A stretch of 64,000 nt of DNA from positions 62,001 through 126,000 of the forward strand of contig NZ_JABURY010000018.1 in the NCBI RefSeq assembly GCF_014489845.1, given 5' to 3'. The notes below the pieces were generated by a model. The model did not search any database. It was not told the DNA's origin and saw only the letters and a program-made list of their open reading frames with translations. The stretch's first letter is position 1, and each line of letters opens with the position of its first letter. This stretch comes from Frischella japonica (lineage in GTDB: Bacteria > Pseudomonadota > Gammaproteobacteria > Enterobacterales > Orbaceae). Shown here in pieces: positions 7,576-38,570 of the stretch. Both the position numbers and the translations under genes were made by a program.

Positions 7576-9858
7576 ATGAACAAATCGATGTTAGTCACTA
7601 AACGCAATGGTCAAAAAGAGCCAATTGATCTTGATAAAATTCACCGGGTGATAAACTGGGCAGCCGAAGGATTAAATAATGTTTCAGTATCCCAAGTGGA
7701 ACTTCGATCTCATATTCAATTTTATGATGGTATTCGTACTGAGGACATTCACGAAACAATTATTCGTGCGGCTGCTGATTTAATATCACAAGAAGCACCT
7801 GATTATCAATATTTATCAGCTCGTTTAGCAATTTTTCATCTGCGTAAAAAAGCCTTTGGTCAATTCGAACCCCCAAAACTTTATGATCATGTTAAAAAAT
7901 TAGTAGCCGATGGTCGTTATGATAAACATTTATTAACTGACTATACAGAATCTGAATTTAATCAAATGGATGGGTTTTTAGATCATTGGCGTGATATGAC
8001 GTTTTCTTATGCAGCGGTAAAACAACTTGAAGGTAAATATTTAGTCCAAAACCGAGTAACTGGACAAATTTATGAAAGTGCGCAATTCTTATATATTTTA
8101 GTTGCAGCCTGCTTATTTGCTAATTATCCTAAAGCAACTCGCCTCGATTACGTAAAAGGTTTTTATGATGCGATTTCAACATTTAAAATTTCATTACCCA
8201 CACCGATTATGGCAGGAGTACGCACCCCGACTCGTCAGTTTAGTTCATGCGTATTAATTGAATGTGATGATAGCTTAGATTCAATCAACGCCACCGCAAG
8301 TGCAATTGTCAAATATGTTTCTCAACGTGCTGGAATAGGGGTTAATGCCGGCCGCATTCGTGCGTTAGGTAGCCCTATTCGGGGCGGTGAAGCTTTTCAT
8401 ACTGGTTGTATACCATTTTATAAATATTTCCAAACTGCAGTAAAATCATGCTCACAGGGAGGAGTACGTGGTGGAGCGGCAACGGTATTTTATCCATTAT
8501 GGCACTTAGAAGTAGAAAGTTTATTAGTGTTACGTAACAATCGCGGTGTAGAAGAAAACCGAGTCCGTCATTTAGATTATGGGGTACAAATTAATAAACT
8601 CATGTATCAGCGTTTAATTAACGGTGAAAATATTACGTTATTTAGTCCGTCAGATGTTCCAGGCTTATATGATGCCTTTTTTTCAAATCAAGATGAATTT
8701 GAACAGTTATATCAACAATATGAAGCTGATGAATCGATTCGCAAACGTTCCGTTAAAGCTGTAGAATTATTTGCACTTCTTATGCAAGAACGTGCTTCGA
8801 CCGGACGTATTTATATTCAAAACGTCGATCATTGTAATACCCATAGTCCGTTTAATGCCGAGGTAGCGCCGATACGTCAGTCCAATTTATGTATGGAAAT
8901 CGCTTTACCAACAAAACCGCTAAATAATATTAATGATGCAACGGGTGAAATTGCTCTCTGTACCTTATCTGCTTTTAATTTAGGGATGATTGAATCATTA
9001 GACGAATTTGAAGAACTAGCGCGTTTGGCAGTACGCGCTCTTGATGGATTATTAGATTATCAAGATTATCCGGTACCGGCCGCAAAAACATCCACTATGA
9101 ACCGCCGTACACTAGGTATTGGAGTGATTAACTATGCTTATTATTTAGCTAAACATGGTGTGAAATATTCTGACGGGAGTGCCAATAATCTTACTCATCG
9201 TACTTTTGAAGCAATACAATACTATTTGTTAAAAGCATCTAATGAATTAGCTATAGAAAAAGGTGCTTGTCCACTATTCCATGAAACAACTTATGCACAA
9301 GGTATTTTACCGATTGACACGTATAAACGTGATTTGGACGATATTGTTAAAACAAAATTGAATTATGATTGGGAAGGATTACGTCAATCGATTAAACAAT
9401 ATGGTTTACGTAATTCAACACTATCAGCGTTAATGCCATCGGAAACCTCATCGCAAATTTCTAATGCAACTAATGGCATCGAACCACCTAGAGGCTATGT
9501 GAGTGTGAAAGCATCTAAAGATGGCATTTTAAAACAAGTGGTGCCTGAGTATGAGACGTTGAAGCATTTTTATGAGTTACTCTGGCAAATCCCGAATAAT
9601 ACCGGTTACTTACAATTGGTCGGCATTATGCAAAAATTTGTTGATCAATCAATTTCAGCGAATACTAATTATGATCCAACTAAATTCGCTAATGACAAAG
9701 TACCAATGAAACAATTACTTGCTGATCTGTTGATCGCATACAAATATGGTGTCAAAACACTTTATTACCATAATACGCGTGATGGAGCAGAAGATATTCA
9801 GGAAGATATCATTACTGTAACTGATGACGGGTGTGAAGGTGGTGCTTGTAAAATTTAA
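7576..9858 (+). CDS. nrdA: Ribonucleoside-diphosphate reductase class Ia, alpha subunit
   Basis: Catalytic subunit that reduces ribonucleoside diphosphates to deoxy forms; works with NrdB. Residues 1-95 form the ATP cone (allosteric activity site). With the start at 7576 the three active-site cysteines fall at 225, 439 and 462, exactly the E. coli numbering, which is why I prefer this ATG over one four codons upstream. The C-terminal tail CEGGACKI carries the shuttle cysteines that pass electrons from thioredoxin or glutaredoxin. The protein is 760 aa, one residue shorter than the E. coli enzyme. nrdB follows after about 150 bp. Tandem NrdR boxes lie upstream. Confidence 0.97.
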   Translation: MNKSMLVTKRNGQKEPIDLDKIHRVINWAAEGLNNVSVSQVELRSHIQFYDGIRTEDIHETIIRAAADLISQEAPDYQYLSARLAIFHLRKKAFGQFEPPKLYDHVKKLVADGRYDKHLLTDYTESEFNQMDGFLDHWRDMTFSYAAVKQLEGKYLVQNRVTGQIYESAQFLYILVAACLFANYPKATRLDYVKGFYDAISTFKISLPTPIMAGVRTPTRQFSSCVLIECDDSLDSINATASAIVKYVSQRAGIGVNAGRIRALGSPIRGGEAFHTGCIPFYKYFQTAVKSCSQGGVRGGAATVFYPLWHLEVESLLVLRNNRGVEENRVRHLDYGVQINKLMYQRLINGENITLFSPSDVPGLYDAFFSNQDEFEQLYQQYEADESIRKRSVKAVELFALLMQERASTGRIYIQNVDHCNTHSPFNAEVAPIRQSNLCMEIALPTKPLNNINDATGEIALCTLSAFNLGMIESLDEFEELARLAVRALDGLLDYQDYPVPAAKTSTMNRRTLGIGVINYAYYLAKHGVKYSDGSANNLTHRTFEAIQYYLLKASNELAIEKGACPLFHETTYAQGILPIDTYKRDLDDIVKTKLNYDWEGLRQSIKQYGLRNSTLSALMPSETSSQISNATNGIEPPRGYVSVKASKDGILKQVVPEYETLKHFYELLWQIPNNTGYLQLVGIMQKFVDQSISANTNYDPTKFANDKVPMKQLLADLLIAYKYGVKTLYYHNTRDGAEDIQEDIITVTDDGCEGGACKI

Positions 9859-9918
9859 ACATAGATAAACGTTTATAGCATAGGAAATCATTATCCCTAT
9901 CGTTTTGGTATATATAAT

Positions 9919-9940
9919 GTGGTAGTTAATTATCTACCAC
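9919..9940. other. Hairpin in the nrdA-nrdB gap
   Basis: GTGGTAG and CTACCAC pair across an 8-base loop, followed by TATGTTTTTATGG. This could be a weak intercistronic terminator or an RNA-processing site that sets the NrdA:NrdB ratio. nrdB lacks an obvious separate promoter. Confidence 0.5.
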
Positions 9941-10010
9941 TATGTTTTTATGGTTAAATCAGCTTAATATTTAACCATAATTAGCTATTTAATCATTGAG
10001 GAATCTTACT

Positions 10011-25631: not shown

Positions 25632-25814
25632 ATATAAATTTACCCCAATTTTAAACGTGAGTTTTGATTGTTTTCGACCAAATTATCATTTAAATTAATA
25701 ACCAATATACAACTTTTTACTAATCAAAATACGATAGAGGTAGTGTTCATAGCTTTATGGCAATATTTTCAAGCTAAATTTAACCTAATATCCCAATAAA
25801 TATCATTCACTATT

Positions 25815-26609
25815 TTACCAATATTCAATTTCTCTGGTTATTGTTACCTTAGGTTCTACCGATATTTGATCTTTAGAATATTTTAGCGCTTTAATCCAAT
25901 CCCCATACTGGTTATATTCAGTATAAAATATTTCATAAACATTTGAAATATTTTCTGAATTTATTATATCATGTTCTTCTTTGATCAATTGTCCTTTATG
26001 ATTATAGAAAAAATAGTTAATCATCCTTACTATTATTTTTCCATTTACTGTCACTTTGGTCTCTTCCTTAGTTGGTAAATCACCATCCCAAGTAATATTC
26101 GCCTCCCAAATGGCTTTATTACCTACGCTTACAGTACGGATTATTTTACCGTTTTGTATGAAATAAGTACTTCCATATTGATATTTATTATCAAAAATTG
26201 TCTGGTCATTAACGCCAATTAATCTAACAATCTCATTATTTTCATCTCTTATAATTGTTCCGCCAGTGATTTTAATTTGCAAAATGGGGAGTAAAAGATT
26301 AAATTTATTGTTATCCAGATCAAATTCTTGACTGGTATTTAATATTTCGAATTGAGGATCAAGATAATTCAACTGACTCTTTAAATAATCACCAGTGTTA
26401 CTATTCTCAAAAACATTTACACTTAAACGCTTACCCTGCTCTTCTGTAATAATTTTTTGTTTTTTTATATAACGTGCATAAGGGGTGAGGTCTACTGAAT
26501 TATTATTAAATGCTTTAATGCGGTCAAATTTTGATTGCGGGGATTTAGCACATCCAATCATAATTAAAGCAAGGATTAAATATAATCCACAACTGAAAAA
26601 CTTCTTCAT
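25815..26609 (-). CDS. Hypothetical lipoprotein
   Basis: I do not recognise a family. The N-terminus MKKFFSCGLYLILALIMIGC is a lipoprotein signal with lipobox IMIGC and the lipidated Cys at 20, so it is membrane anchored, probably in the periplasm or outer membrane. The 264-aa mature part has repeated beta-hairpin-like stretches (NGKIIRTVSVGNKAIWEA, NGKIIVRMINYFFYNHKGQLIKEE), loosely like YwqK/toxin_YwqK repeat proteins. It faces away from the zinc-ribbon/SPFH set across a 338-bp divergent spacer. Lineage-restricted, AT-rich accessory gene. Confidence 0.7.
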   Translation of the reverse strand: MKKFFSCGLYLILALIMIGCAKSPQSKFDRIKAFNNNSVDLTPYARYIKKQKIITEEQGKRLSVNVFENSNTGDYLKSQLNYLDPQFEILNTSQEFDLDNNKFNLLLPILQIKITGGTIIRDENNEIVRLIGVNDQTIFDNKYQYGSTYFIQNGKIIRTVSVGNKAIWEANITWDGDLPTKEETKVTVNGKIIVRMINYFFYNHKGQLIKEEHDIINSENISNVYEIFYTEYNQYGDWIKALKYSKDQISVEPKVTITREIEYW

Positions 26610-26947
26610 TTATTACCTTTTTATTTTTTTAATTCGGCTTAGTTGTATTTCGTTAAAAATTTTATCATAATGAAATTGTGTTGTTAATAGCAATCATTTT
26701 TAAATGGTTTATTCATAATATTGATCACAGATTGATTCAATTAAAACATATAATGCTATCATATTAAATTAAATAATAATTTCACTTACAATGTTGGGAT
26801 GTCACAATAGGCTTACTTTATGATCGTATGATTATATCTGTATTCTCGCCTTAATTTTAACCGAAAATAATTATTTTGTAATTTTATAAAAAGCTTATAA
26901 TATCTCTTCCTTACACCTCACTTATAATTATAACTTATATTTAACAT
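26610..26947 (+). promoter_or_regulatory. Divergent promoter region
   Basis: This 338-bp gene-free, very AT-rich stretch separates the lipoprotein gene from the zinc-ribbon gene. A TATAAT at 26896-26901 with TTTTGT about 16 bp upstream could be the rightward promoter. I see no clear operator. Confidence 0.4.
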
Positions 26948-28318
26948 ATGGCTTCTAATATACTAACCATCAAATGCCCACAGTGCGGGTGCATTAAACA
27001 TAGTTCGCTTGGGAATGATAAATACCATTGTGACGGATGTGGTGCAATCTATTTTATTGATAAAAATGATATGCATATTTTTCATCACCAACAAAACGGA
27101 CCACAAAATACCATTAAATCGAATAAACTTTTAATCATCGGATTAATTATTTTCTTCTCTGCATTATTCCTGATTCGATTTTTTGTAATTCAAATCAAAA
27201 ATACCGAAACAACTCAACCCAAGGTAGTTGAATACAGGAGCTATGTTACATCAAATGAAAATCGTATAAAACCAACTCAACCAACGAAAAAAGAGTTATG
27301 GAAACATAAAAATATTGCTATGTTTATCACTAATGACACTCCTTATTTAATTATGGAAAGTCATTTATCAATATCAGAATCCATGAAACCAACCCAAGAT
27401 CAATATTTCATCAAAATATTTAATACCAAAACCCAGCGTTTTGAGAGTGAATTCAATTTGATTGATGAGCATAATAATAAATTCCCCTATGTTATAAAAA
27501 CATGGGATGATGGTGAAATATTATTGTTAATCAATAATCTAAAACTATTTCAACTAAATAAAAAAGAAAAAATTTTTAAAAATGTCAATGACTCTTTCTT
27601 TTCCGAACATCCAGAATTTTCGCAAGGTTTAGCAAAAATTGAATTTGTTAGAGACGATTGGGGAAGTGGCCTATATGTTTACACGAATGAAGGTAAACAT
27701 TTTTATTTTTATCCAACTATCAATAAACTTTATGATAAAGATGCTTTTTTTGACGCCAATTCTGGTTTCAAATCCTTACCGGAAAATACAGCTACTAGCA
27801 CGGGCTTTGCATTTAATATCTATAGCTATGAATATCCTGACGAAGATTCGCTGCTGATAAAATTTGATTACAAATATCAACCAAATTATCCAAGAGAACA
27901 GCCTTCGTTTAGTTGGCGAAAATTTTATGGTACAGAAGATGGTTTTTTTACTGATGAAACCCCTTATCAAAAAGTACTTATGAATGAATGGATGATGAAT
28001 AGAACTCGTACCATAAAATATCAGAATTTTACTCCAGATCGTGTCTACTTCTTCCCTAAATTATTGGATTTTAATGAAGAATTTATTTTAATTGCTTTTA
28101 CAACCTCTCCAGTAAAAGCCGAAAATTATATCGTACAATTATTAAATGCAAAAAGTGCTGAAATAATTTGGAGTTACGATTTCCCATTAAACTTCAAGAA
28201 TACTCGAGGAAAAATATTAGGGGATCGTATTTTATTAATGACAGATGATCATTTAATTGAATTAAATGAAAAAGGAAAACAAACATTAAGTCTCGATATC
28301 ACTTCGTTAAACAATTAG
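26948..28318 (+). CDS. Zinc-ribbon, single-pass membrane protein with predicted beta-rich C-terminal domain
   Basis: Not assignable to a named family. Residues 10-35 form a zinc ribbon (CPQCGC...CDGCG). A lysine-bounded hydrophobic helix KLLIIGLIIFFSALFLIRFF at about 58-77 crosses the membrane. The remaining ~370 residues are rich in short beta strands with repeated patterns such as FNTKTQRFESEFNL and LLNAKSAEIIWSYDF, which suggest a WD/PQQ-like propeller; this is inference. The stop codon is 15 bp before the SPFH gene, so the two are co-transcribed. No strong ribosome-binding site is visible at the chosen ATG. Confidence 0.72.
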   Translation: MASNILTIKCPQCGCIKHSSLGNDKYHCDGCGAIYFIDKNDMHIFHHQQNGPQNTIKSNKLLIIGLIIFFSALFLIRFFVIQIKNTETTQPKVVEYRSYVTSNENRIKPTQPTKKELWKHKNIAMFITNDTPYLIMESHLSISESMKPTQDQYFIKIFNTKTQRFESEFNLIDEHNNKFPYVIKTWDDGEILLLINNLKLFQLNKKEKIFKNVNDSFFSEHPEFSQGLAKIEFVRDDWGSGLYVYTNEGKHFYFYPTINKLYDKDAFFDANSGFKSLPENTATSTGFAFNIYSYEYPDEDSLLIKFDYKYQPNYPREQPSFSWRKFYGTEDGFFTDETPYQKVLMNEWMMNRTRTIKYQNFTPDRVYFFPKLLDFNEEFILIAFTTSPVKAENYIVQLLNAKSAEIIWSYDFPLNFKNTRGKILGDRILLMTDDHLIELNEKGKQTLSLDITSLNN

Positions 28319-28332
28319 GAATAAATATAACT

Positions 28333-29358
28333 ATGTTTGGAATTTTTAAAAAACAATTTGCTTCCGTAATTGAATGGGCTGATAATTCGGCAAATATTTT
28401 ATGGTATCAATGCCCAAATATAAACAATAATGAAATCAAAAATGCATCTAAACTTATCGTTGCCCCTGGACAAGGATGCGTTTTGGTTTATGAAGGTAAA
28501 ATTGTTGATATTATTGAAGAGGCTGGTATTTATAATTTAAAAACTGATAATCATCCTTTTATCACAACGTTATTAAAAATTAGACAATCATTTGAAAGTG
28601 AACATAAACTGTATATATACTTTTTCAAAACAACAACTACGGTAAACCAAGGCTGGGGAACTTCGTCACCAATTAAGTATTTAGATCCTGACTACCAATT
28701 CCCTATTCAACTAAAAATGAATGGTAATTATTCTTATTGTATCAGTGATATTCGCCATTTTTATCAACAAATTATTGGTCAACAAAAACAATACACCGTA
28801 AATGATGCCAAAGAGTTAATTACAAGCCGAATCATTCAGGTAATAACATCTATATTAGCATCGGGTAAATATGCTTTTCTACAAATTGATTCAGAATTTA
28901 ATCAAATATCAGAAAATGTTAAGAAACAACTAACCGATGAGTTTACGAAATTAGGCCTTAGTCTTACTGATTTTCGGATTATTGCTTCACAGTTTGATCA
29001 AGAAACTGAAAACCGAATAGCCAAAATAGCTAATATTTCAGTAGATGTCATTGCTGCCGGTAAAGCTAACTTAAGTTATGCTGAAATGGAAAAACTACAA
29101 GCTATACGTGATGCGGCTAGAAATGAAGGTGGTGTAGCTGCTTTAGGTGCACAATTTATGGCAGGTGCGGAATTGTCTAAAACTTTTACACAAAATGCTA
29201 TAAACACAGAACATACTCAAGGCGTTTTGGATAAGCAAACAGCAGAAACCAATGATGTTTTTAATAAACTCACTAAATTAAAACAATTGTTAGAGCTGGG
29301 TGTTATTACACAAACAGAATTCGAAGCCAAGAAAAAAGAGTATATTGATAAGCTTTAA
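28333..29358 (+). CDS. SPFH/Band-7 domain protein with C-terminal SHOCT motif
   Basis: A 341-aa protein of the YdjI/virion-core-like SPFH group. The beginning of the SPFH domain is seen in SKLIVAPGQGCVLVYEGKIVDII and AGIYNLKTDNHPFITTLLKI. The coiled-coil half includes DEFTKLGLSLTDFRIIASQFDQET. The C-terminus NDVFNKLTKLKQLLELGVIT...EFEAKKKEYIDKL is a SHOCT domain, a short oligomerisation helix pair. Unlike classical flotillins it has no N-terminal membrane anchor. It may organise a complex on the adjacent membrane protein. AGGA precedes the start; genes on both sides are within 15 bp. Confidence 0.83.
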   Translation: MFGIFKKQFASVIEWADNSANILWYQCPNINNNEIKNASKLIVAPGQGCVLVYEGKIVDIIEEAGIYNLKTDNHPFITTLLKIRQSFESEHKLYIYFFKTTTTVNQGWGTSSPIKYLDPDYQFPIQLKMNGNYSYCISDIRHFYQQIIGQQKQYTVNDAKELITSRIIQVITSILASGKYAFLQIDSEFNQISENVKKQLTDEFTKLGLSLTDFRIIASQFDQETENRIAKIANISVDVIAAGKANLSYAEMEKLQAIRDAARNEGGVAALGAQFMAGAELSKTFTQNAINTEHTQGVLDKQTAETNDVFNKLTKLKQLLELGVITQTEFEAKKKEYIDKL

Positions 29359-29372
29359 TAAAGGGTCAAAAA

Positions 29373-29615
29373 ATGAGAACAATTTTAGCCAGTCTTTGCA
29401 TAGCTTTTATTTTTATGCTTTCACTATGGGTGATACTACTAATATGGGATATTAATTTATTACAACACATTGATATAATAAAAATCGCCTTAACAATAGC
29501 AGCCATTATAATAAGTTGCATTTTATTATGTTTGGTGTCAGCAATGTTTTTTAATAAAAGTGAACATCGATATGATAAAACAGCTGGTAAGGTTGCCCAA
29601 CCAAAAAAAACATAA
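29373..29615 (+). CDS. Small two-helix membrane protein
   Basis: An 80-aa protein with two strong transmembrane helices (about 5-27 and 33-58) and a basic tail ending KTAGKVAQPKKT. AGGG lies 6 bases before the ATG. It follows the SPFH gene by 14 bp, so it is the third gene of that set and likely a partner of it. No named family recognised. Confidence 0.7.
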   Translation: MRTILASLCIAFIFMLSLWVILLIWDINLLQHIDIIKIALTIAAIIISCILLCLVSAMFFNKSEHRYDKTAGKVAQPKKT

Positions 29616-29931
29616 CTTTTGCTGAAATTTTATGGGGATGCTCAGCGCATAACAAAATAACTATTCTTTTAATGCTAATTAAATAATTTATATTTAGCTG
29701 AAAAATCCAAATTGATTTTAAATTTAGATTTTTTTATAACAACAGTGATTTTTTATAATTTGATGAATCAATCTGTTTTTATTCTTGCTCGTTTATTATT
29801 TTTTTGTCTTAAGAGTGGTTATATCTTTCAGTTGCTAAATATAGTGTTTTTCATTTATTATTAGAAACACACTTTCAAAAATCAATAAATATATAATCAT
29901 TATCGATTAATTATTTATGTGGCGAAAAATA
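29616..29931 (+). other. Gene-free AT-rich spacer before the WGR-ankyrin gene
   Basis: About 316 bp without a credible ORF. T-rich, with several TATA-like patches but no clear terminator or operator. It probably holds the promoter of the next three-gene set. Confidence 0.4.
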
Positions 29932-32900
29932 ATGATAACAAGCTATTTTGAATTCTCTGATGGTTTATCTAATAAATATTGGTATATCTGCACTCAAAAA
30001 ACCACTCAATTAACCGTTACCGGTAAATTAAAGAAAGAAGGTAAAGTGCTTACTAAGCAGTTTGCAACAGAAGAATTGTGTCATGCTAATAGTTTAAAAG
30101 AAATAGAAGCTAAATTAAATAAAGGTTATATTGAAAAAAAAATTCCTGATTGGTTTAATTGTCTAAACATTACTGATACTGTTGCTATAGAGGAAAAACG
30201 AGTAGCTAAAGAGTCAATACTTGTTTCTACTGAAAAAGGGATTCAACCTCAGGATATTAGAAGATTTTTTCGTGCCATTAGAAACAATGATATCAATTCA
30301 GTTATTCAATATCTGTCTGTAGGATTACGGCCCGATATACCCAATTATTGCGATAATGGATATGAGATTGCATTAATGAATCATCATAAGGAAATGCTCA
30401 AATTACTTACGCCTTATATTAATACTGCTGAGAATAATAAGTTATCCTATTTAAGGACTATTGTTATCCACTATCGCTATAGTGAAAAAATAGATGATAT
30501 TACCCAAACTTTACTTAGCGTTAATTATGATTTCGCTAATGATGAAGGCTTTGAAGCTTTATTACCTTATTTGAAAGTTAATTTAGTAAAACAATTACTT
30601 GAATTGGTCAAAATCAATGTACGAGATTTAGATCGTCAAGTTCTTTTTGATAGTTTGGTGCACAAAAATAAACCGGTTATTATTTATCTCGTTGACAATG
30701 GCATTTCGATGGATGGCGTAGATCCCAACTCAGGTTTATCACTAATGCATCTTGCATTTTATCACTTTGGTGATGATTTACCTTTGATTAAAAAGCTACT
30801 TTCAGCAGGCGCTGATCCCTATATTTATAGTACAGGAGAGATTATACGCCCAGGATTAAAATTTGGAGGTGGTGAAAACGCGTTTGACTATGCCATTAGA
30901 GAAATGAGCCCAAATGTTATTCATTATGTTGAAAAACTCTATGTTGATTTTGAAGATAATCTACCAATTAAAACAGTTTTAACATCGGCTATGTTAAGTT
31001 TTTCACCGGCCATAAAACGTTTTTTATCGAAACCCGATCGTCCTATTTATGATGAACATGGCAATTCATTGATCCATTATGTTTGTTGCGCTACCCACGA
31101 ATCAACTGCGATAGAAAATATCGTTTATATGCTAAAAAATAATATCAAAATTAATATTGTAAATAATATTCATCGTAACGGATTGTTTTATTTTTGGTTT
31201 AATGGCTCTGGGGTGCCTTGGCAGTTAGGCGATGAACTTAATGAGTTGTTAGGCGTTAATAATTTTTTTAATGCCGTTCTTAGTAAGACTAGTTCAATGT
31301 TTTGGTCTCAATTACGTGCAGAATATGGTATTAAAGATCCTGATTCCAAAGGGGATTTTTTAGTTAAGTGGTTTTCTGGTGTGATTGGCGACCGAGATTT
31401 TTTAGCTTTATTACTGCAAAAAGCAGGCGCCGATATTGAATGTACTGATATCTACGGTATGACGCCAATTATGTTCTATGCTAGGTATAGCTTAAAAGAT
31501 GATCCGGGAAAATTAGCCCATCCATTATTACAGATACCAGCTAATAATTCAGCAAAACCTGAAGATGATAACCTATATGATGAATCATCAAGTGAAGATA
31601 GGCGGTATTACGCTTTAATTTCTTTATTGCGCTGCCGACCTAATGTAACACGACGCTATCAAGATGATGGTGCCACCATATTACATCATATCCAACGTCA
31701 TAAAATCTATGAAAAAGCGGAAATTTTAAGCTTATTATATTTTCTAGGTGCGGATGTTAATGCTAAGGATAATAAAGGGCGCACACCACTTCACTACATT
31801 ACTTTAGCTGATAGCTCGGCATCATTTATGGATATAGAATTAGAAGATGCCATTATTCATTTAATTGCTAAAGGTAAGGCGAACCCGAATATCCAGGATC
31901 ACGAAGGCAATACTCCGTTACATTTAGCGCTTGCAGATAGTGATAAATATAATTTGGTAGAAACACTATTAGAATATGGTGCCAATCCCCTTATTGCGAA
32001 TAGTTTGGGCGAAACAGCTGAAGATTTAATTGAAAAATTAGCATTACAAAGAAAATTTGCTGAAAATATTGCTATCAATCAACATAAGCAAGCCAATAGC
32101 CATGCGGTTGAATTAAATTGGCAACCACTCAACACACCTAATAAAGCAGTTAATTCAAATTTACATCTTTATGCTAGTTTAGCATTGCCGCGATATTCTT
32201 TAGATCATCTAATGATAACCAGCTCTTACTTGTATGTAACAGAAAAGGGAATAGACCGAACTTACTGCATAGATAAAATAACAGGTAAGACACTATTTGG
32301 TCGTTATGGCATTAGTTATCCCTATTCTTATAACGGACATCTTTATGCTGGCGTAGAAAACCGTTTTGCTGAAATAGATCAGCAATCTGGCAAAGTTTTA
32401 TGGTCAGTCGGTTTAGGTCAAGATATGAGTGGACCTATCTATATTCACAATGATCGCGCTGTTTGTGTTGTGCAAAAAAATTTAGTAGGGATATGTTTAA
32501 AACAACGCAAGCAACAATGGAAAGTCAGTTTATATGGTAGATTGACCGCAAAAGGGTATATTGTTGATAATCATTTAGTAATTTTAACTCAAGAGGCTCG
32601 TTGTACTAAAGTTAATATTATTGATTTTTTATCGGGTTCTATTGTTGAAAACGCAGAACTCTATACTCTAAATGGTTTTATTGATAGTTTTCAAATGACC
32701 GACCAATTGTGGGTTTATACTCGAGATAATATCATTCAGACATTGAATTTTAGCTCTATGAAAATTGATCATATTGTATGTGAGTTTGATGATGATGAGT
32801 ATTGGCAATCATTTAGTATTATGGGACTATGTAACGGACATAATCAAGTCTATGGTTTATTTAAATTAATATCAAAAAATGAACAACAAAACCCCATCTA

Positions 32901-33189
32901 TCGTTTATGTTATTTAGATGGTGCAAATGCCCATACAGTAGTTGATGTACCTGTAGGTGGACCAATTCATTATCATAACGATATGCTTATAATATTAGAT
33001 CCCCATCAAAAAGCCGTAGGAACATTTAATCTAAAAAATCAAGATTGGCAAATGTGGCAATTTCCGAGTTTCCATGGTGATGATGGTGTACGTCAGCTCT
33101 TCATAGCAAATGATGGTTATATTTTTGTGGCACAAGGTGGTGGAGCATCCTATCCAGATCAAGATTTGTTGTATGTATTAAAAAACTAA
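29932..33189 (+). CDS. WGR-ankyrin repeat-propeller fusion protein
   Basis: A 1,085-aa cytoplasmic multidomain protein (no signal peptide or membrane helix). Residues 1-70 (YFEFSDGLSNKYWYI ... LKKEGKVLTKQFATEE ... LNKGYIEK) resemble a WGR domain, a nucleic-acid- or PARP-associated module. Ankyrin-like repeats follow in at least three blocks: about 110-160, 265-300, and 495-705, the best being DVNAKDNKGRTPLHYI and NPNIQDHEGNTPLHLA. From about 745 to the end, repeats like YCIDKITGKTLFGRYG and AEIDQQSGKVLWSVGLG suggest a PQQ-type beta-propeller. I chose the ATG at 29932 because the WGR domain begins there; an ATG five codons earlier has no ribosome-binding site. It heads a set with the two genes after it. 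Function unknown. Confidence 0.8.
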   Translation: MITSYFEFSDGLSNKYWYICTQKTTQLTVTGKLKKEGKVLTKQFATEELCHANSLKEIEAKLNKGYIEKKIPDWFNCLNITDTVAIEEKRVAKESILVSTEKGIQPQDIRRFFRAIRNNDINSVIQYLSVGLRPDIPNYCDNGYEIALMNHHKEMLKLLTPYINTAENNKLSYLRTIVIHYRYSEKIDDITQTLLSVNYDFANDEGFEALLPYLKVNLVKQLLELVKINVRDLDRQVLFDSLVHKNKPVIIYLVDNGISMDGVDPNSGLSLMHLAFYHFGDDLPLIKKLLSAGADPYIYSTGEIIRPGLKFGGGENAFDYAIREMSPNVIHYVEKLYVDFEDNLPIKTVLTSAMLSFSPAIKRFLSKPDRPIYDEHGNSLIHYVCCATHESTAIENIVYMLKNNIKINIVNNIHRNGLFYFWFNGSGVPWQLGDELNELLGVNNFFNAVLSKTSSMFWSQLRAEYGIKDPDSKGDFLVKWFSGVIGDRDFLALLLQKAGADIECTDIYGMTPIMFYARYSLKDDPGKLAHPLLQIPANNSAKPEDDNLYDESSSEDRRYYALISLLRCRPNVTRRYQDDGATILHHIQRHKIYEKAEILSLLYFLGADVNAKDNKGRTPLHYITLADSSASFMDIELEDAIIHLIAKGKANPNIQDHEGNTPLHLALADSDKYNLVETLLEYGANPLIANSLGETAEDLIEKLALQRKFAENIAINQHKQANSHAVELNWQPLNTPNKAVNSNLHLYASLALPRYSLDHLMITSSYLYVTEKGIDRTYCIDKITGKTLFGRYGISYPYSYNGHLYAGVENRFAEIDQQSGKVLWSVGLGQDMSGPIYIHNDRAVCVVQKNLVGICLKQRKQQWKVSLYGRLTAKGYIVDNHLVILTQEARCTKVNIIDFLSGSIVENAELYTLNGFIDSFQMTDQLWVYTRDNIIQTLNFSSMKIDHIVCEFDDDEYWQSFSIMGLCNGHNQVYGLFKLISKNEQQNPIYRLCYLDGANAHTVVDVPVGGPIHYHNDMLIILDPHQKAVGTFNLKNQDWQMWQFPSFHGDDGVRQLFIANDGYIFVAQGGGASYPDQDLLYVLKN

Positions 33190-33246
33190 TGAACATAAAT
33201 TGTTCAACTTCGAAAATCCCAATGTTAAAATTAAAAGAGGTCAAAT

Positions 33247-34635
33247 GTGTCAAAAGAATTAGACAAAAGCTTTCGTTTATTTAAAAAACCGTTTCATGTG
33301 GTATTGGTTGGAAGCGGGTTAGATGTTTTACTACCCAGTACTTATAATACAATATTTACTGATGCAAAAATGCGCTATCAACAAGTTGATGATGAGCACT
33401 ATCTATTTGTGAAATCAGCCACAGGATGCTTATCAACAAACCCACCAAATAATCTAGGATATCGAATAACAATCTCTTATGTGAAAAATTATAAGGCTAA
33501 TGACTACTTTCAGCAGTATAAAAATATCTATCAAGATGTAAGCGAACAATTATCAGAAGATGTTGAGTTGTGGTGTAAAGTGTTATCTATTCCGCAAACC
33601 CCTCCAGGAACAAAAACCTATGAATTAGTGCTAGAAGCCCAAAATGGATTGATGTTAATAACCGGCTCCGCCATTCCCCACGATGAATTAGATGAATTTT
33701 TAGTATTAGCGGAATATATTCAGCATTATGATGGGGACATACCTACGATTTCTGATAAAGATGGCTATAAAAATAATACTTATCATCCTGAAATTATTTT
33801 AATGAATATGGATGATGAAGAGCGCTTATTAGAACAAGAGCTTGAACAGTATGAAGCAGAAGATCACGATGAGTACGATGATGTCGATGATGATTGGGAA
33901 ATTTGTGTTAATTTAAATGATAAAGAGCAAATGCGACGAGTCCTTAATCGTTTAATCGACAATTTTGACGAAATCGAAGAATTTTTGAGTTTTGGCTCGA
34001 TAGTAAACGGTGAATTTCAAGAATATCAGCATGAAGAAGAAGACAATAAATTTTATCAAGTTGGATTGTGTAGTGAGTTATTCTTTTTTGAAGCTGCAGT
34101 GAAATTTCCAGCTTTACACAAGAAAATTATTGATTACATCAATCTTGCTATTGATGAAGAAGGACCTTGGATGGATGAAGAGACACCAAAAGCACTGCAT
34201 GCTGCATATGCCTTAGCGATGTATGACCAAAAATATATTCCTAAATATATTGAGTTATTGCGAGTGTTAGATATGGACCATGAAGTCTATCAATGTGGGC
34301 AAATAGCAAAACTGATAGAAAAATGGCAAAAATATGATAATGCTATTCGACTCATGGCAAGTCGTAGTTGTAGTGTCGCAGGTCAACACGGATTTGAAAA
34401 TTTAGATCCAGAAATTTTAGACAGTATTCAACGAAAAGAGACATTTTTAAAATATCTTTTACTTGATGCCAAAGAAAACCATTATGATTATCCAAATCAC
34501 TTGAAGAGTTTGATGAGTGTCTGTTTAGAACCAGTACTAGAAACAGTCGATATTGATTTTAATGAAGTTAAGCTAATTAATGCATTAAGATCTATACATG
34601 AAAATTCATCTATTAGTTTAGATGATATTGCATAA
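33247..34635 (+). CDS. Conserved hypothetical protein, acidic, partner of WGR-ankyrin gene
   Basis: I do not recognise a family in this 462-aa protein. The first ~170 residues look like a mixed alpha/beta domain (FHVVLVGSGLDVLLP ... LMLITGSAIPHDELDEF). Next is an acidic linker (LEQELEQYEAEDHDEYDDVDDDWE, about 194-220), and a helical C-terminal half with a HEAT/TPR-like feel (HAAYALAMYDQKYIPKYIELLRVL). The start is a GTG with AGAGG 6 bases upstream. It lies 57 bp after the WGR-ankyrin gene and overlaps nothing real at its end; the next start is 22 bp on. Confidence 0.72.
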   Translation: MSKELDKSFRLFKKPFHVVLVGSGLDVLLPSTYNTIFTDAKMRYQQVDDEHYLFVKSATGCLSTNPPNNLGYRITISYVKNYKANDYFQQYKNIYQDVSEQLSEDVELWCKVLSIPQTPPGTKTYELVLEAQNGLMLITGSAIPHDELDEFLVLAEYIQHYDGDIPTISDKDGYKNNTYHPEIILMNMDDEERLLEQELEQYEAEDHDEYDDVDDDWEICVNLNDKEQMRRVLNRLIDNFDEIEEFLSFGSIVNGEFQEYQHEEEDNKFYQVGLCSELFFFEAAVKFPALHKKIIDYINLAIDEEGPWMDEETPKALHAAYALAMYDQKYIPKYIELLRVLDMDHEVYQCGQIAKLIEKWQKYDNAIRLMASRSCSVAGQHGFENLDPEILDSIQRKETFLKYLLLDAKENHYDYPNHLKSLMSVCLEPVLETVDIDFNEVKLINALRSIHENSSISLDDIA

Positions 34636-34657
34636 TAAAATTAATTTGGAGAAAACA

Positions 34658-35872
34658 ATGATCACCCGTACATATTATAAAAATAAAAAAGGTCAAACCG
34701 GCTTTATAGAATTAAATGGTTTAACTTTGCGATCAGGATTAGACTCTGATATTCAGATCGAAACCTTTACCGATCAAAATGATATAGGCATTGCTTTTAA
34801 TGGTTTAATAATGAAAATGGTTCAAAATGGTTTTGAATTTGATCGTGTTGAAACAGAAGAAACTGCTGAAGATATTGCTGCAAAAACAGTGGATGGTGTA
34901 CTTTTGCAAGACAATCAATTTATTGTTGATTTTAATGATCCTAAGTCCCTACAAAATACTTTAGAAAATCACTATACAAATTTTTTCCAGTATATCGAAG
35001 CTATTGAAGGAAAAGGTATTTTTTATGGTCAAGTAAAAGATGGTAAATTTGTTCCTCATACAGTTGTGTCAGGTGATAATGAGCTAGACTTTTATCTAGC
35101 CGCTGTCAAACATGAGTCTTTACGACCTTTAATTAATGAATTGTTAACCAAGATCATTACCAATAACACTGATGAAAAGACGAATATGCGTGATGATAGT
35201 ATGCCAGTCGGTGCAGTTGCAGCATTTGTCAATGCTTATAACGATAAAAAATACTTAGTCACTTACCGTCGCTTGCAAGATAGTATAATCTACCTTAATC
35301 GCCATAAAGCTAGATTTGATTTCGATGGGCAAAAAGGAAATCATATACCTCAATTATTAACAAAATGGGGATTTGACGACAATGATGAATATGCATTCAC
35401 GTTTTTAGCAGCTCAGCTTATTAATATTGACAATCCGAATCAAGCCAAAGAAACGGCTTATATTCTTAATGAACTCGGATTAGCCGAAAAATTGAAAAGC
35501 AGAGAATATTTAGAAAAGCTTTATATAGCCATTGCAGAGCGAGCTGCTCATATTTTTAATCAAAATGATGTTGAAAAGAGAGCTGGTGGAGAATATTTAT
35601 ATGTCGCATTAAATGCATTGGGTATCACGTGTAATAAAAAAGATGCCTATATGGTTTGCTATTTAATGGATGATATTCGACATTATCCATCTCTTGCTCA
35701 GTTATTAGCTGGTAACATTAATGAAGATGATGATTTTACACCAATTGAAGGTGTGTATGATGAAGAAAATTGTGATGATGACGACGATGATTGGGCGGAT
35801 GATGGTTATGATGATGACGAAGAAGAAGATGAAAACGAGTGGGAAGACGATGACGATGAAGATGATAAATAA
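34658..35872 (+). CDS. Conserved hypothetical protein with extreme acidic tail
   Basis: A 404-aa protein of no recognised family. The body is alpha/beta (MITRTYYKNKKGQTGFIELNGLTL) followed by helices. The last ~35 residues are almost only Asp and Glu with a few Trp/Tyr/Asn (from EENCDDDDDDWADD onward), a DNA-mimic or charged-anchor type tail. I chose the ATG at 34658, preceded by GGAG at good distance; an ATG 12 codons upstream overlaps the previous gene and lacks a site. It is the last gene of the WGR-ankyrin set. The low-complexity GAT/GAA run also produces spurious antisense ORFs, which I ignored. Confidence 0.73.
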   Translation: MITRTYYKNKKGQTGFIELNGLTLRSGLDSDIQIETFTDQNDIGIAFNGLIMKMVQNGFEFDRVETEETAEDIAAKTVDGVLLQDNQFIVDFNDPKSLQNTLENHYTNFFQYIEAIEGKGIFYGQVKDGKFVPHTVVSGDNELDFYLAAVKHESLRPLINELLTKIITNNTDEKTNMRDDSMPVGAVAAFVNAYNDKKYLVTYRRLQDSIIYLNRHKARFDFDGQKGNHIPQLLTKWGFDDNDEYAFTFLAAQLINIDNPNQAKETAYILNELGLAEKLKSREYLEKLYIAIAERAAHIFNQNDVEKRAGGEYLYVALNALGITCNKKDAYMVCYLMDDIRHYPSLAQLLAGNINEDDDFTPIEGVYDEENCDDDDDDWADDGYDDDEEEDENEWEDDDDEDDK

Positions 35873-36533
35873 GTTATACTTTCTCAAATTAAGTGATAAA
35901 CTCAAAAAAGTTAAATTCGACTAAAATCGATTTTTAATTAATGTGTAATAGTCTTTATTCAATCTGATTCTGACATTATTTTATAGCGTATAAAAAAATG
36001 TCAGAAATAAATAAAAATAGCAAACTCATTAATTTTAAATTAGTGCTTTTTAGATGAATTAGCAACACATCTCGGTCATGTCAAAGCGGTAAAGTCATTG
36101 GATATGACCGAGTCAATTATTTTCGCTATAACTTTACGGGCTTAATACTATTGTATTAGAAACCGCATCAGGCAATATTAAAGCAAAAACTTTTATTAGT
36201 CTCTTTGGTCTTACTAAACATGTAAGTATAGATACGCTGTTTAAACGACAAAGCTTAAATTTTTTCAAGTTCTGTAATCAATTGTCTTTTAACTCCAAAG
36301 CTTTTTCTTATTTTTAAACCATAAGAAATCTATAATATTTTATCGCTAAAAAACTGCGCTAATTTATCAAACTGAAAAATTGTAGACTTTTACCTTATCT
36401 CCATAAAAATTAAATTTTATAAAAAATGTTTACATTATTTATTATTTCTTATAAGCCTTATTCTAAAAGGATTTAGACGGTAAACACTTTAGGATTAATT
36501 ATTTACTGGTGTTCACTTTACGTATTCACTAAA
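35873..36533. other. Gene-poor spacer with decayed coding fragments
   Basis: About 660 bp without an intact gene. Short conceptual peptides in shifting frames (for example ATHLGHVKAVKSL, GYDRVNYFRYNFTGL and KTFISLFGLTKHVSIDTLF, around 36060-36260) look like remains of a broken gene that I cannot identify. An inverted repeat CTCGGTCATGTC (36071-36082) / GATATGACCGAG (36101-36112) lies inside it, with one mismatch. Confidence 0.45.
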
Positions 36534-36558
36534 TAAAAAAACCGCTAAATAATAGCGG
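36534..36558 (-). terminator. Rho-independent terminator of the fic gene
   Basis: On the minus strand CCGCTA-TTATT-TAGCGG is followed by a run of T. It lies just past the fic stop codon. Confidence 0.88.
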
Positions 36559-36579
36559 CTCATAGTTATGATAATGAGA

Positions 36580-37914
36580 TTAATTATCTAATAAGTTATC
36601 CAACAAGTCAGATGGTGAAATATATGTTCTAACTTTGCTGTTTCCAATAAGCAATAATAGTCCATTATCTTCCAGCCCTTTTAAATCAGATCTTGCTGTA
36701 TTTTCAGACACACTGTATTCAATACTTATCGATTTTGCAATAAATTGCCTACCCGGTTCTTTAGCTGCTTTTTTTAGAATATCAATTTGTCTAAAATTTA
36801 ACTTTGATGCTATTTTAGAATTTTTAATTCTAGTTAAGAAATAGGCTAATTCTCGTTGCTTTCTATGTAGATAATTATTTAATTCGTCGATAGACCGCAT
36901 GATAATATCAATTTGGTGGTATAGAAAATAAGTAGTATCTAATTCATCATCTTCTACATATAAATAAGCTTTTGCATACTGTATTGGTGCGTTTTTAATT
37001 AATTTACTTATTGATGTATATTCAAATAACCAATAACCAGACTTCATCATAAACCAATAAAATAAGGCTCTTGCAGTTCTTCCATTTCCATCTCCGAAAG
37101 GATGAATAAAGCCAATAAAAAAATGTAACAATATTGCTTTAATTACTGGATGTATAAAAAACTCGCCTTCTTCACAATCATGACGAGTATTAACAAAATT
37201 ACATAAATCACTCATCAAATCATAAAGTTTATCTGCTTTAGGTGGCGTATAAATAACTTCTTGTAAATGGTTTCTAACATAAATATCATCTGTTTGTCTA
37301 AACTCACCACAGACAGCATTATTTTCTATTGCACCAGTTGTTGCTATTTCATGAAAACTGAGAATTAGCTCAATAGATAAACTTTCATTTTTCATTTCCA
37401 ATGCTTTCTTCATTAATAAATAATTATTTAAAATCATAATTTCAGATTTATTTTTTGGTTTCCTATCTAATTCAAGCATTTTTTTGGCTATTCTTCTTGT
37501 TGTTGAAGCGCCTTCAAGCTGAGCCGATGAAATAGCTTCTTCCATAATTAAAGAATGAACTAAATATTTATTATTAACTCCATCCATCGATTCAGGATTA
37601 TTCGTCCCTATATAACCACTGGATTTTTTATCTATTGTGTGGAGATCTCTTTGTAAAGAATCAGGAACACAAAAGCTAAATTGATATTCACCTATATTAA
37701 TTTTTTTACTTGACTGTAACCTAGAAATTTTAGTCGCAGCCCATGCTAAATCAATATCAATATCTTCATCATTTTTTTTATATTTAAAGTCATTCCAATG
37801 GAGATACCGACCTTTTACATCAGTTTCCTTAAATTTACCTAAAACCTTAATTAAATCTATAGAATGAATAACTTTAATCATTTCTTTTAATGATTTAGCG
37901 TGTGATATTCTCAT
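36580..37914 (-). CDS. Fic family protein (predicted AMP transferase) with winged-helix C-terminus
   Basis: Fic enzymes transfer AMP or related groups from nucleotides to target hydroxyls. The core motif HPFGDGNGRTAR is complete at about 267-278, so the catalytic His is present. An inhibitory helix motif of the (S/T)xxxE(G/N) type, SAQLEG, is at about 130, N-terminal to the core, making this a class II, self-inhibited Fic protein. The last ~70 residues (FRQIDILKKAAKEPGRQFIAKSISIEYSVSENTARSDLKGLEDNGLL) form a winged helix that may bind DNA. At 444 aa it is full length. The start codon abuts a 10-bp inverted repeat. It is isolated on the minus strand next to an integrase remnant. Confidence 0.9.
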   Translation of the reverse strand: MRISHAKSLKEMIKVIHSIDLIKVLGKFKETDVKGRYLHWNDFKYKKNDEDIDIDLAWAATKISRLQSSKKINIGEYQFSFCVPDSLQRDLHTIDKKSSGYIGTNNPESMDGVNNKYLVHSLIMEEAISSAQLEGASTTRRIAKKMLELDRKPKNKSEIMILNNYLLMKKALEMKNESLSIELILSFHEIATTGAIENNAVCGEFRQTDDIYVRNHLQEVIYTPPKADKLYDLMSDLCNFVNTRHDCEEGEFFIHPVIKAILLHFFIGFIHPFGDGNGRTARALFYWFMMKSGYWLFEYTSISKLIKNAPIQYAKAYLYVEDDELDTTYFLYHQIDIIMRSIDELNNYLHRKQRELAYFLTRIKNSKIASKLNFRQIDILKKAAKEPGRQFIAKSISIEYSVSENTARSDLKGLEDNGLLLLIGNSKVRTYISPSDLLDNLLDN

Positions 37915-37946
37915 ATTTAACTCATTTTTTAAAAATTGAGTTAAAT
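37915..37946 (-). promoter_or_regulatory. Inverted repeat abutting the fic start codon
   Basis: ATTTAACTCA (37915-37924) and TGAGTTAAAT (37937-37946) are perfect inverted arms around an AT-only 12-bp spacer. In the mRNA the downstream arm, GAGTTAAAT, contains the only Shine-Dalgarno-like GAG before ATG, so a hairpin would hide it. Alternatively it is an operator for the Fic winged helix. Confidence 0.55.
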
Positions 37947-38131
37947 GATATTATTTAATCACCATAAAGTAAAGGTTACATTTAATAAAGAATTTATCTT
38001 TACCGTAAAATGAAGGTTATTTTATAAAATCTTTAGTTCATGATAGCCAATCTTTATTCATGTCTCAATTTATTTGTAAATTTGATTCATCCCAGTATTA
38101 GTACGTTTTTTTAATATAAGACTTTTGGTTT

Positions 38132-38402
38132 TCATTTATAGCCTAATCTAATGATGTGCCAAAACCATTTAGTGAAAATGGGATTATTAAGCACTGAATT
38201 TCGGACATACTCAATATATGCATGATAAAGATATTTTTTGGAGTTTAAGGGTGTTATAGCTAAATTGCCATATTTTTGTACCTGTAGACTTGATAAGAAA
38301 AAGCAAACCACTACCATCATAAATAGGATAATCCTTACTTTGTGGCTTGGCGTTCTTAATTTGTGTATCAGTCATTGGAGCTTTTTTTAGGCATACTTTC
38401 AC
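38132..38402 (-). pseudogene. Tyrosine-recombinase integrase remnant (N-terminal fragment)
   Basis: The translated fragment TDTQIKNAKPQSKDYPIYDGSGLLFLI...KIWQFSY is the DUF4102-type arm-binding N-terminus of P4-like prophage/island integrases. After about 50 residues the frame breaks and the rest of the ~400-aa enzyme, including the catalytic R-H-R-Y part, is gone. It starts about 200 bp from the 3' end of tRNA-Leu and faces away from it, the usual arrangement for an island integrated at a tRNA gene. Between it and the fic gene I see only AT-rich sequence. Confidence 0.82.
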
Positions 38403-38570
38403 CTTTTGGTGGCTATGAAATTATGGGACTATGTCCGCGTAGTCCTTAATGTAGTCTCCCAAAATATCAATTCAAATATGTCTTACTGATACTTGCAGAA
38501 TAGTAAAATATATTCGTACTAGTTTTGATGTGGTTTAAAGGATTTTGAAGAATATTACTGATTATTGAAT

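What the first reader, a model, noticed from the sequence alone, without database searches (positions are those of the whole stretch)
29932..35872. Candidate undescribed system: WGR-ankyrin-propeller protein with two acidic partners
A 1,085-aa protein combines a WGR-like module, scattered ankyrin repeats and a C-terminal propeller. It is followed by two unfamiliar proteins, one with an acidic linker and helical repeats, one with a ~35-residue Asp/Glu tail. WGR modules bind nucleic acids in other proteins and extreme acidic tails can mimic DNA or anchor basic partners. The three genes are spaced 57 and 22 bp and appear to be one operon. I know of no described system with this make-up.
Basis: partly seen in the sequence, partly recalled or inferred. 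Interest (0 to 1): 0.65.

Follow-up and report, generated by a model that had tools for sequence, protein, structure and literature searches.

The report
Mobile WGR-ankyrin operon of unknown function
A rare three-gene bacterial operon, in which only binding modules were recognised and which has been moved or copied as one unit, is probably part of some molecular conflict or stress response, but what it does is unknown.

Summary
Three same-strand genes lie at 29932-35872: a 1,085-aa WGR-ankyrin-propeller protein (P1) and two acidic proteins of 462 aa (P2) and 404 aa (P3), spaced 57 and 22 bp.

P2 and P3 are paralogues sharing a helical module distantly related to DUF6138; the same module lies inside tandem ~1,100-aa WGR-DUF6138 proteins of this genome and three relatives. 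And another contig of this genome carries a deletion relic of the operon: the 5' end, the P1/P2 junction and the 3' flank in order (78-86% identity), interiors gone. So about 29826-36371 behaves as one duplicable unit, without the upstream SPFH cassette.

No intact second copy was found (P2 in 98 relatives and 368 genomes of the class, P1 in 43 and its C-terminus in 397 of the phylum; plasmids, phages, viral contigs in part). No enzyme domain reaches a cut-off. The WGR signature reads T-G-K, which weakens the nucleic-acid reading. Both structure models were unusable.

Best guess, weakly supported: a binding-only complex in intracellular conflict, like polymorphic-toxin immunity loci. No paper found describes the combination. 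New variant of poorly characterised WGR/DUF6138 proteins.

The parts
29826..36371 (+). Unit shared in order with the deletion relic on contig C37 (outer limits of similarity)
   Evidence: Relic G000:C37 about 9113-9975 (-) matches window 29826-30076 (78%), 33111-33261 (86%) and 35902-36371 (85%)
29932..33189 (+). P1, 1,085-aa WGR-ankyrin-propeller protein (open frame from 29917)
29944..30138 (+). WGR domain of P1; signature reads T-G-K instead of W-G-R
   Evidence: Pfam PF05406 23.9 bits vs cut-off 22; alignments
30580..32028 (+). Ankyrin-repeat region of P1
   Evidence: Ank_2 2.6e-22 whole protein, several stretches
32320..32655 (+). Propeller-like (PQQ_2/BamB-like) part of the P1 C-terminus; the rest of 32050-33189 may belong to it
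   Evidence: PQQ_2 E 1.1e-5, 25.6 bits, below cut-off 27.6
33247..34635 (+). P2, 462 aa, acidic (pI 4.5)
33808..33927 (+). Acidic linker of P2 (20 of 40 residues D/E)
33958..34503 (+). DUF6138-like helical module of P2
   Evidence: 28.7 bits to a profile made only from the WGR-DUF6138 arrays; DUF6138 16.9 bits, below cut-off
34658..35872 (+). P3, 404 aa, acidic (pI 4.3); open frame from 34622
34910..35383 (+). DUF6138-like module of P3, homologous to P2
   Evidence: blastp 3e-5 in a set of 9 proteins; 24.8 bits to a module profile built without P3, best of 500 shuffles 8.5; only 5.0 bits to the arrays-only profile
35759..35863 (+). Asp/Glu tail of P3 (27 of 35 D/E)
35902..36371 (+). 3' flank: decayed sequence, partly like the HTH end of a transposase-like gene that is multi-copy in some relatives
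   Evidence: at least 12, 12 and 8 query matches in G014, G024, G016; HTH_29 in the G014 copy

Best explanation
Shown: P1-P2-P3 lies in a unit that existed at least twice in this genome (one intact, one reduced to a relic), in a variable locus between tRNA-Met and tRNA-Leu. P2 and P3 are paralogues built on a DUF6138-like helical module, which in the same genome is also fused to WGR in tandem arrays. Inferred: the unit is a split version of the WGR-DUF6138 proteins. It would make a binding-only complex in which P1 (degenerate WGR, ankyrin repeats, propeller) is the recognition and scaffold subunit, and the acidic P2 and P3 dock on it and bind a basic partner. With no enzymatic domain recognised, the likeliest role is neutralising or sequestering a foreign protein inside the cell, as in the polyimmunity loci of polymorphic-toxin systems, which also use ankyrin and HEAT modules. 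The target is unknown.
For: Relic with conserved order. Different site content in the same-genus genome: window 25645-38519 is replaced by other genes in G001 (one 75-bp non-coding stretch is shared), and G003 has an integrase-like gene beside tRNA-Leu. P2/P3 homology and link to the arrays. Arrays are tandem, in 4 of 44 family genomes, own included, with a variable stretch (0.53-0.63 mean pairwise identity over residues 134-411) and a constant C-terminus (about 0.9) over 14 array proteins. No catalytic family reaches a cut-off in P1-P3 in Pfam or NCBIfam, and none is convincing in PADLOC or PHROGs. Ankyrin and HEAT immunity proteins and polyimmunity loci are described in PMC3482391 (passages).
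Against: No toxin gene was recognised among the 8 island proteins scanned; the only candidate, the convergent Fic gene, looks like a self-inhibited class II Fic (motif recalled, read from the sequence). Weak sub-threshold hits touch the P3 N-terminus: AbiEii, a nucleotidyltransferase toxin (function recalled), E 0.0017 in PADLOC over 65 aa, and Nmad5, E 0.019-0.041 in Pfam; they could mean an unseen enzyme. The P2 N-terminus (about 180 aa) has no known homologue. WGR does not occur in the held part of PMC3482391. Structure models were too poor to test a complex.
Confidence: 0.3

Rival explanations
1. An anti-phage system: P1 senses a phage protein or DNA through ankyrin, propeller and WGR, and P2 or P3 carries an effector of a fold not yet recognised.
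For: Rare, copied as a unit, in a variable tRNA-flanked locus; ankyrin part matches candidate defence models PDC-M72A 2.5e-13 and 'Ankyrin' 1.1e-5; P3 N-terminus AbiEii 0.0017; WGR occurs at the C-terminus of a PDC-S37/Hhe-like helicase-nuclease in G393.
Against: The P1 hits cover only the ankyrin part; the AbiEii hit is short and weak; P2 has no PADLOC hit. P1 not found in 50,697 phage records; P1 and the P2 alignment not found in viral contigs.
Confidence: 0.2
2. A DNA-damage or stress complex: WGR proteins respond to genotoxic stress and P1 recruits the acidic partners to nucleoprotein.
For: The WGR protein DR2173 of Deinococcus radiodurans is strongly up-regulated on DdrO depletion (PMC8533742, passages). 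WGR in eukaryotic PARPs takes part in DNA-break recognition (recalled; abstract starts in the listing).
Against: Signature residues of the P1 WGR are T-G-K; no LexA-like site near the operon: 12 hits in the window against 13.2 expected, the nearest at 36696 behind the operon (consensus recalled from E. coli).
Confidence: 0.15
3. A decaying accessory operon with no current selected role.
For: One of two copies is already a relic, the 3' flank is decayed, and no intact copy was found in the 43 other family genomes (P1; P2).
Against: All three reading frames are intact over 5.9 kb with fitting ribosome-binding sites for P2 and P3.
Confidence: 0.15

Closest known systems
Tandem WGR-DUF6138 proteins (~1,100 aa) of the same genome and three relatives
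   Same: WGR at the N-terminus and the same helical module as P2/P3
   Different: One chain, no ankyrin or propeller hit and no acidic tail in those scanned (3 proteins); a conserved C-terminal region with no counterpart found in P1-P3; a DUF6384 gene follows the array in G025 and a similar gene, by eye, in G012, but not in G018
MolR / WGR-DUF4132 proteins (E. coli yeh locus, Sinorhizobium ATPase-DUF5682-WGR/DUF4132-VWA-SWIM locus)
   Same: N-terminal WGR in a large multi-module protein
   Different: No DUF4132 in P1-P3; no ATPase, VWA or SWIM hit above cut-off among the 8 island proteins scanned
Polymorphic-toxin immunity (Imm-Ank, Imm-HEAT, polyimmunity loci)
   Same: Binding-only repeat modules; variable loci (PMC3482391, passages)
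   Different: No toxin recognised beside it; WGR not mentioned in the held text; P1 is far larger than a typical immunity protein (recalled)
PDB 2ra8 (uncharacterised Bacteroides fragilis protein)
   Same: Closest solved WGR sequence (E 0.0086 for the P1 N-terminus, 8e-14 for an array WGR)
   Different: Only the WGR parts were compared; in the whole-P1 search the 60 of 346 hits shown are ankyrin-type matches

Membership tests
WGR domain (PF05406) | Profile score above the curated cut-off | tested here: met
   23.9 bits vs 22; 29.2 bits in the whole-genome search
WGR domain (PF05406) | Trp-Gly-Arg signature | tested here: not met
   Reads T-G-K in P1; the array WGRs listed read F-G-K, Y-G-A or Y-G-E
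Ankyrin-repeat proteins | Repeats above cut-off | tested here: met
   Ank_2 79.6 bits vs 27.3
DUF6138 (PF19635) | Score above the cut-off over the full length | tested here: not met
   P2 16.9 bits vs 25, profile positions 380-467 only; P3 none. Distant homology of the module is supported
WGR-DUF6138 single-chain proteins | WGR and DUF6138 in one chain | tested here: not met
   WGR in P1, module in P2 and P3; a WGR in the P3 N-terminus is not supported (2.2 bits, shuffles up to 8.7)
MolR / WGR-DUF4132 systems | DUF4132 domain | tested here: not met
   No DUF4132 hit at E up to 1
Known anti-phage systems (PADLOC-DB 2.0) | System-specific models hit over most of each protein | tested here: not met
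   Only ankyrin-region hits for P1; P2 none; P3 AbiEii 0.0017 over 65 aa
Polymorphic-toxin immunity loci | A cognate toxin or other immunity genes alongside | tested here: inconclusive
   No toxin family among the 8 island proteins except Fic; the rest of the genome was not searched for toxins
Polymorphic-toxin immunity loci | Neutralises a toxin | not testable with these tools
   Needs an experiment

The most novel reading that the evidence does not exclude
P1-P2-P3 is a self-contained, mobile conflict complex of a kind not described before: a degenerate-WGR/ankyrin/propeller scaffold with two paralogous acidic DUF6138-type subunits, the split and diversified cousin of a wider family of tandem WGR-DUF6138 proteins that together form an unrecognised immunity or defence superfamily.
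Probability: 0.25. Interest if true: 0.65.

Novelty: new variant of a known kind. Interest (0 to 1): 0.42.

Why it matters
If the unit is functional, it gives a first handle on proteins that combine WGR with DUF6138-type modules; no paper naming DUF6138 or DUF6384 is in the held library. The relic suggests that the three genes travel as one package, so they can be cloned and tested together. A phenotype would also suggest a role for the tandem WGR-DUF6138 arrays.

Tried and rejected
Structure prediction: P1 alone (mean pLDDT 36.5) and P2 with P3 as alignment (41.5) were unusable, so no fold search was run.

P3 N-terminus as a degenerate WGR: hinted at by hhalign (E 0.21), rejected by the shuffle control.

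P4-P6 (26948-29615) as part of the operon: rejected. P4 homologues are in 17 of 44 family genomes, own included, some of them partial or broken. In the 9 such loci read (L067-L074, L077), P4 and P5 lie together without any match to P1-P3 or the array proteins; P6 was detected in 6 of these 9. The relic also lacks them.

SOS control: no site. Second copies: plasmids none for P2 and P3, and for P1 two ankyrin-only matches; phages none for P1, the only one tried there; viral contigs none for P1 and the P2 alignment. First genome-contig scan with P1: none of 48 stretches; second with A2: 1 of 114, the G705 MAG itself. These contig scans start from exact short peptide patterns and reach close relatives only. 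P1 C-terminus in 398 genomes: own plus two weak hits, 2e-4 and 6.5e-4, not followed up.

WGR-ankyrin fusions elsewhere: 84 of 398 genomes have WGR, own included. From the long frames, 7 loci were read and 6 proteins scanned: three DUF4132, one helicase architecture, two without hits at 1e-4; none with ankyrin. A second WGR protein in L146 was seen and not scanned; L149 gave no WGR with my profile and was dropped; frames under about 400 codons were not read.

Array alignment: only frames over 1,000 aa with the KFWYI motif were kept (14); shorter or cut ones were dropped.

Direction of the operon/relic duplication: the apparent match to the end of the C37 hydrolase gene does not settle it, because the G013 homology ends at about the same point.

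Full report
Anatomy. The three genes are on the + strand: P1 29932-33189 (1,085 aa; the frame opens at 29917), P2 33247-34635 (462 aa, GTG) and P3 34658-35872 (404 aa; frame from 34622). P2 and P3 have good ribosome-binding sites, AGAGGT and GGAG; P1 has no clear one. P1 has a WGR domain (23.9 bits, cut-off 22), ankyrin repeats (Ank_2 2.6e-22) spread over about residues 220-704, and a C-terminal part with a sub-threshold PQQ_2 match (E 1.1e-5 for the piece alone). P2 (pI 4.5) has an acidic linker with 20 of 40 residues D/E; P3 (pI 4.3) ends in a tail with 27 of 35 D/E. No enzyme domain reaches a cut-off in Pfam or NCBIfam; PADLOC and PHROGs give no convincing one. Two weak hits to the P3 N-terminus should be kept in mind: AbiEii 0.0017 and Nmad5 0.019-0.041.

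P2 and P3 are related. BLASTP pairs P2 216-365 with P3 97-254 (E 3e-5 in a set of 9 proteins; P3 numbered from 34622). P2 also matches the helical part of tandem ~1,100-aa proteins of the same genome and of three relatives (4 of 99 genomes, own included); the three array proteins scanned carry WGR and DUF6138. A profile from 14 array proteins alone scores P2 28.7 bits but P3 only 5.0, G705 4.3 and G415 0.5. A wider module profile, built without P3, scores P3 24.8 bits; the best of 500 shuffles of P3 scores 8.5, and the best of the 42 other window ORFs 3.9. The scores of P2, G705, G415 and G308 against that wider profile are by construction. A WGR domain in the P3 N-terminus is not supported (2.2 bits; shuffles reach 8.7).

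The operon moved or was copied as one unit. On contig C37 of the same genome, about 9113-9975 (-) matches window 29826-30076 (78%), 33111-33261 (86%) and 35902-36371 (85%), in this order and with almost nothing in between. These are the start of P1, the end of P1 with the start of P2, and the flank behind P3. The relic has in-frame stops in P1. So a longer copy once stood there and lost its interiors; the middles of P1 and P2 and all of P3 are gone, so their presence in that copy is inferred from the outer ends. The upstream genes P4-P6 are not in it. The 3' flank looks decayed; similar sequence occurs many times in G014, G024 and G016 (at least 12, 12 and 8 matches to the query, which also spans a second repeat), with an HTH in one G014 copy that I read as a transposase end.

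Locus. Against the same-genus genome G001, similarity ends at window 25644 and resumes at 38520; different genes lie between tRNA-Met and tRNA-Leu there. One 75-bp non-coding stretch (window 36401-36474) does have a match inside the G001 locus. In G003 an integrase-like gene lies beside tRNA-Leu/secG (named from its sequence, no profile run). No integrase was seen among the 8 proteins of the window's island that were scanned.

Distribution. Outside this genome no full-length homologue of P1, P2 or P3 was found. P2: 4 of 99 genomes, own included, where the three others match only through array proteins, and 2 of 369 of the class (own and G705, a stand-alone 273-aa protein among transposase-like genes; a groundwater MAG). 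P1: 4 of 44 family genomes, own included, WGR-only in the others; its C-terminal part 3 of 398, own included, two of them weak. P3 was searched on its own only in plasmids, with no match. Plasmids: P1 2 of 72,556 records, ankyrin only; P2 none. Phages, P1 only: none of 50,697. Viral contigs, P1 and the P2 alignment: none. DUF6138 itself is rare: 4 of 398 genomes at E 0.001, own included, 3 over the cut-off; in G308 and G417 the gene stands among unrelated-looking genes without WGR.

Wider WGR picture. 84 of 398 genomes of the phylum have a WGR match, most in short frames of about 80-200 codons. Of the long-frame proteins, six were scanned: three WGR-DUF4132, one helicase/DUF4011/MTES_1575 nuclease with C-terminal WGR that matches PADLOC's PDC-S37 and Hhe models, and two without hits at 1e-4; none had ankyrin repeats. 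WGR therefore occurs in conflict-type proteins, but among the proteins examined the WGR-ankyrin-propeller combination was seen only here.

Arrays. In the 14 array proteins aligned (frames over 1,000 aa only), residues 134-411 have mean pairwise identity 0.53-0.63 in blocks of 50 columns, while the C-terminal ~165 residues have about 0.9. This would fit a variable recognition part on a constant base, but it was not tested against a model. A DUF6384 gene follows the array in G025 and a similar gene, by eye, in G012, not in G018.

Mechanism. What is shown is the package and its kinship. What it does is inferred. Every module that reaches a cut-off binds rather than cuts. The P1 WGR lacks the signature residues (T-G-K), which weakens but does not exclude nucleic-acid binding. 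The held literature describes ankyrin and HEAT proteins as immunity proteins and speaks of polyimmunity loci (PMC3482391, passages) and reports a WGR protein up-regulated on DdrO depletion in Deinococcus (PMC8533742, passages). PMC7824862 (one passage) calls WGR a DNA-binding domain of MolR-like factors, which speaks for the nucleic-acid reading. I favour a neutralising complex in intracellular conflict (0.3), ahead of phage defence (0.2), a damage response (0.15) and decay (0.15); about 0.2 is left for something else.

Limits. The structure models failed. Toxins elsewhere in the genome were not searched. Papers: 9 searches of the held library. For DUF6138 and DUF6384 the library has no paper; for WGR with ankyrin the 20 of 30 listed were mostly on eukaryotic PARPs. 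I read passages of PMC8285248, PMC4275035, PMC7824862, PMC7159879, PMC8533742 and PMC3482391, and only listings of the rest.

Noticed in passing
window 26948-29615: Conserved cassette: zinc-ribbon/TM protein, SPFH (Band_7_1) protein and a small TM protein. P4 homologues occur in 17 of 44 family genomes, own included, with P5 beside it in all 9 loci read.
   Followed up: partly
window 36580-37914 (-): Fic protein with HPFGDGNGR and an N-terminal SSAQLEG, which reads like the inhibitory motif of class II Fic (motif recalled); convergent with the operon.
   Followed up: no
G000:C36 and C15 (L018, L019); G025, G018, G012 (L078-L082): Tandem arrays of ~1,100-aa WGR-DUF6138 proteins; a large autotransporter-like gene (named from its sequence only) lies about 0.6 kb away in G025 and G012 and 6.7 kb away in G018.
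   Followed up: partly
L086 6644-9137 (contig C37) vs G013: 2.5 kb beside the relic is 96.6% identical to a genome of another genus: recent transfer is likely.
   Followed up: no
window 36373-36556: A non-coding stretch with about 73-91% matches in many family genomes, sometimes within a few kb of secG/tRNA-Leu (G025, G012, G034, G001) and sometimes in several copies; no Rfam match there.
   Followed up: no
L143 14-5356 (G393): Helicase-DUF4011-nuclease protein like PDC-S37/Hhe with a WGR domain at the C-terminus.
   Followed up: no
L093 8789-9610 (G705): Stand-alone 273-aa protein with the P2 module (shared W-DEETP and GQHGFE motifs) among transposase-like genes.
   Followed up: partly
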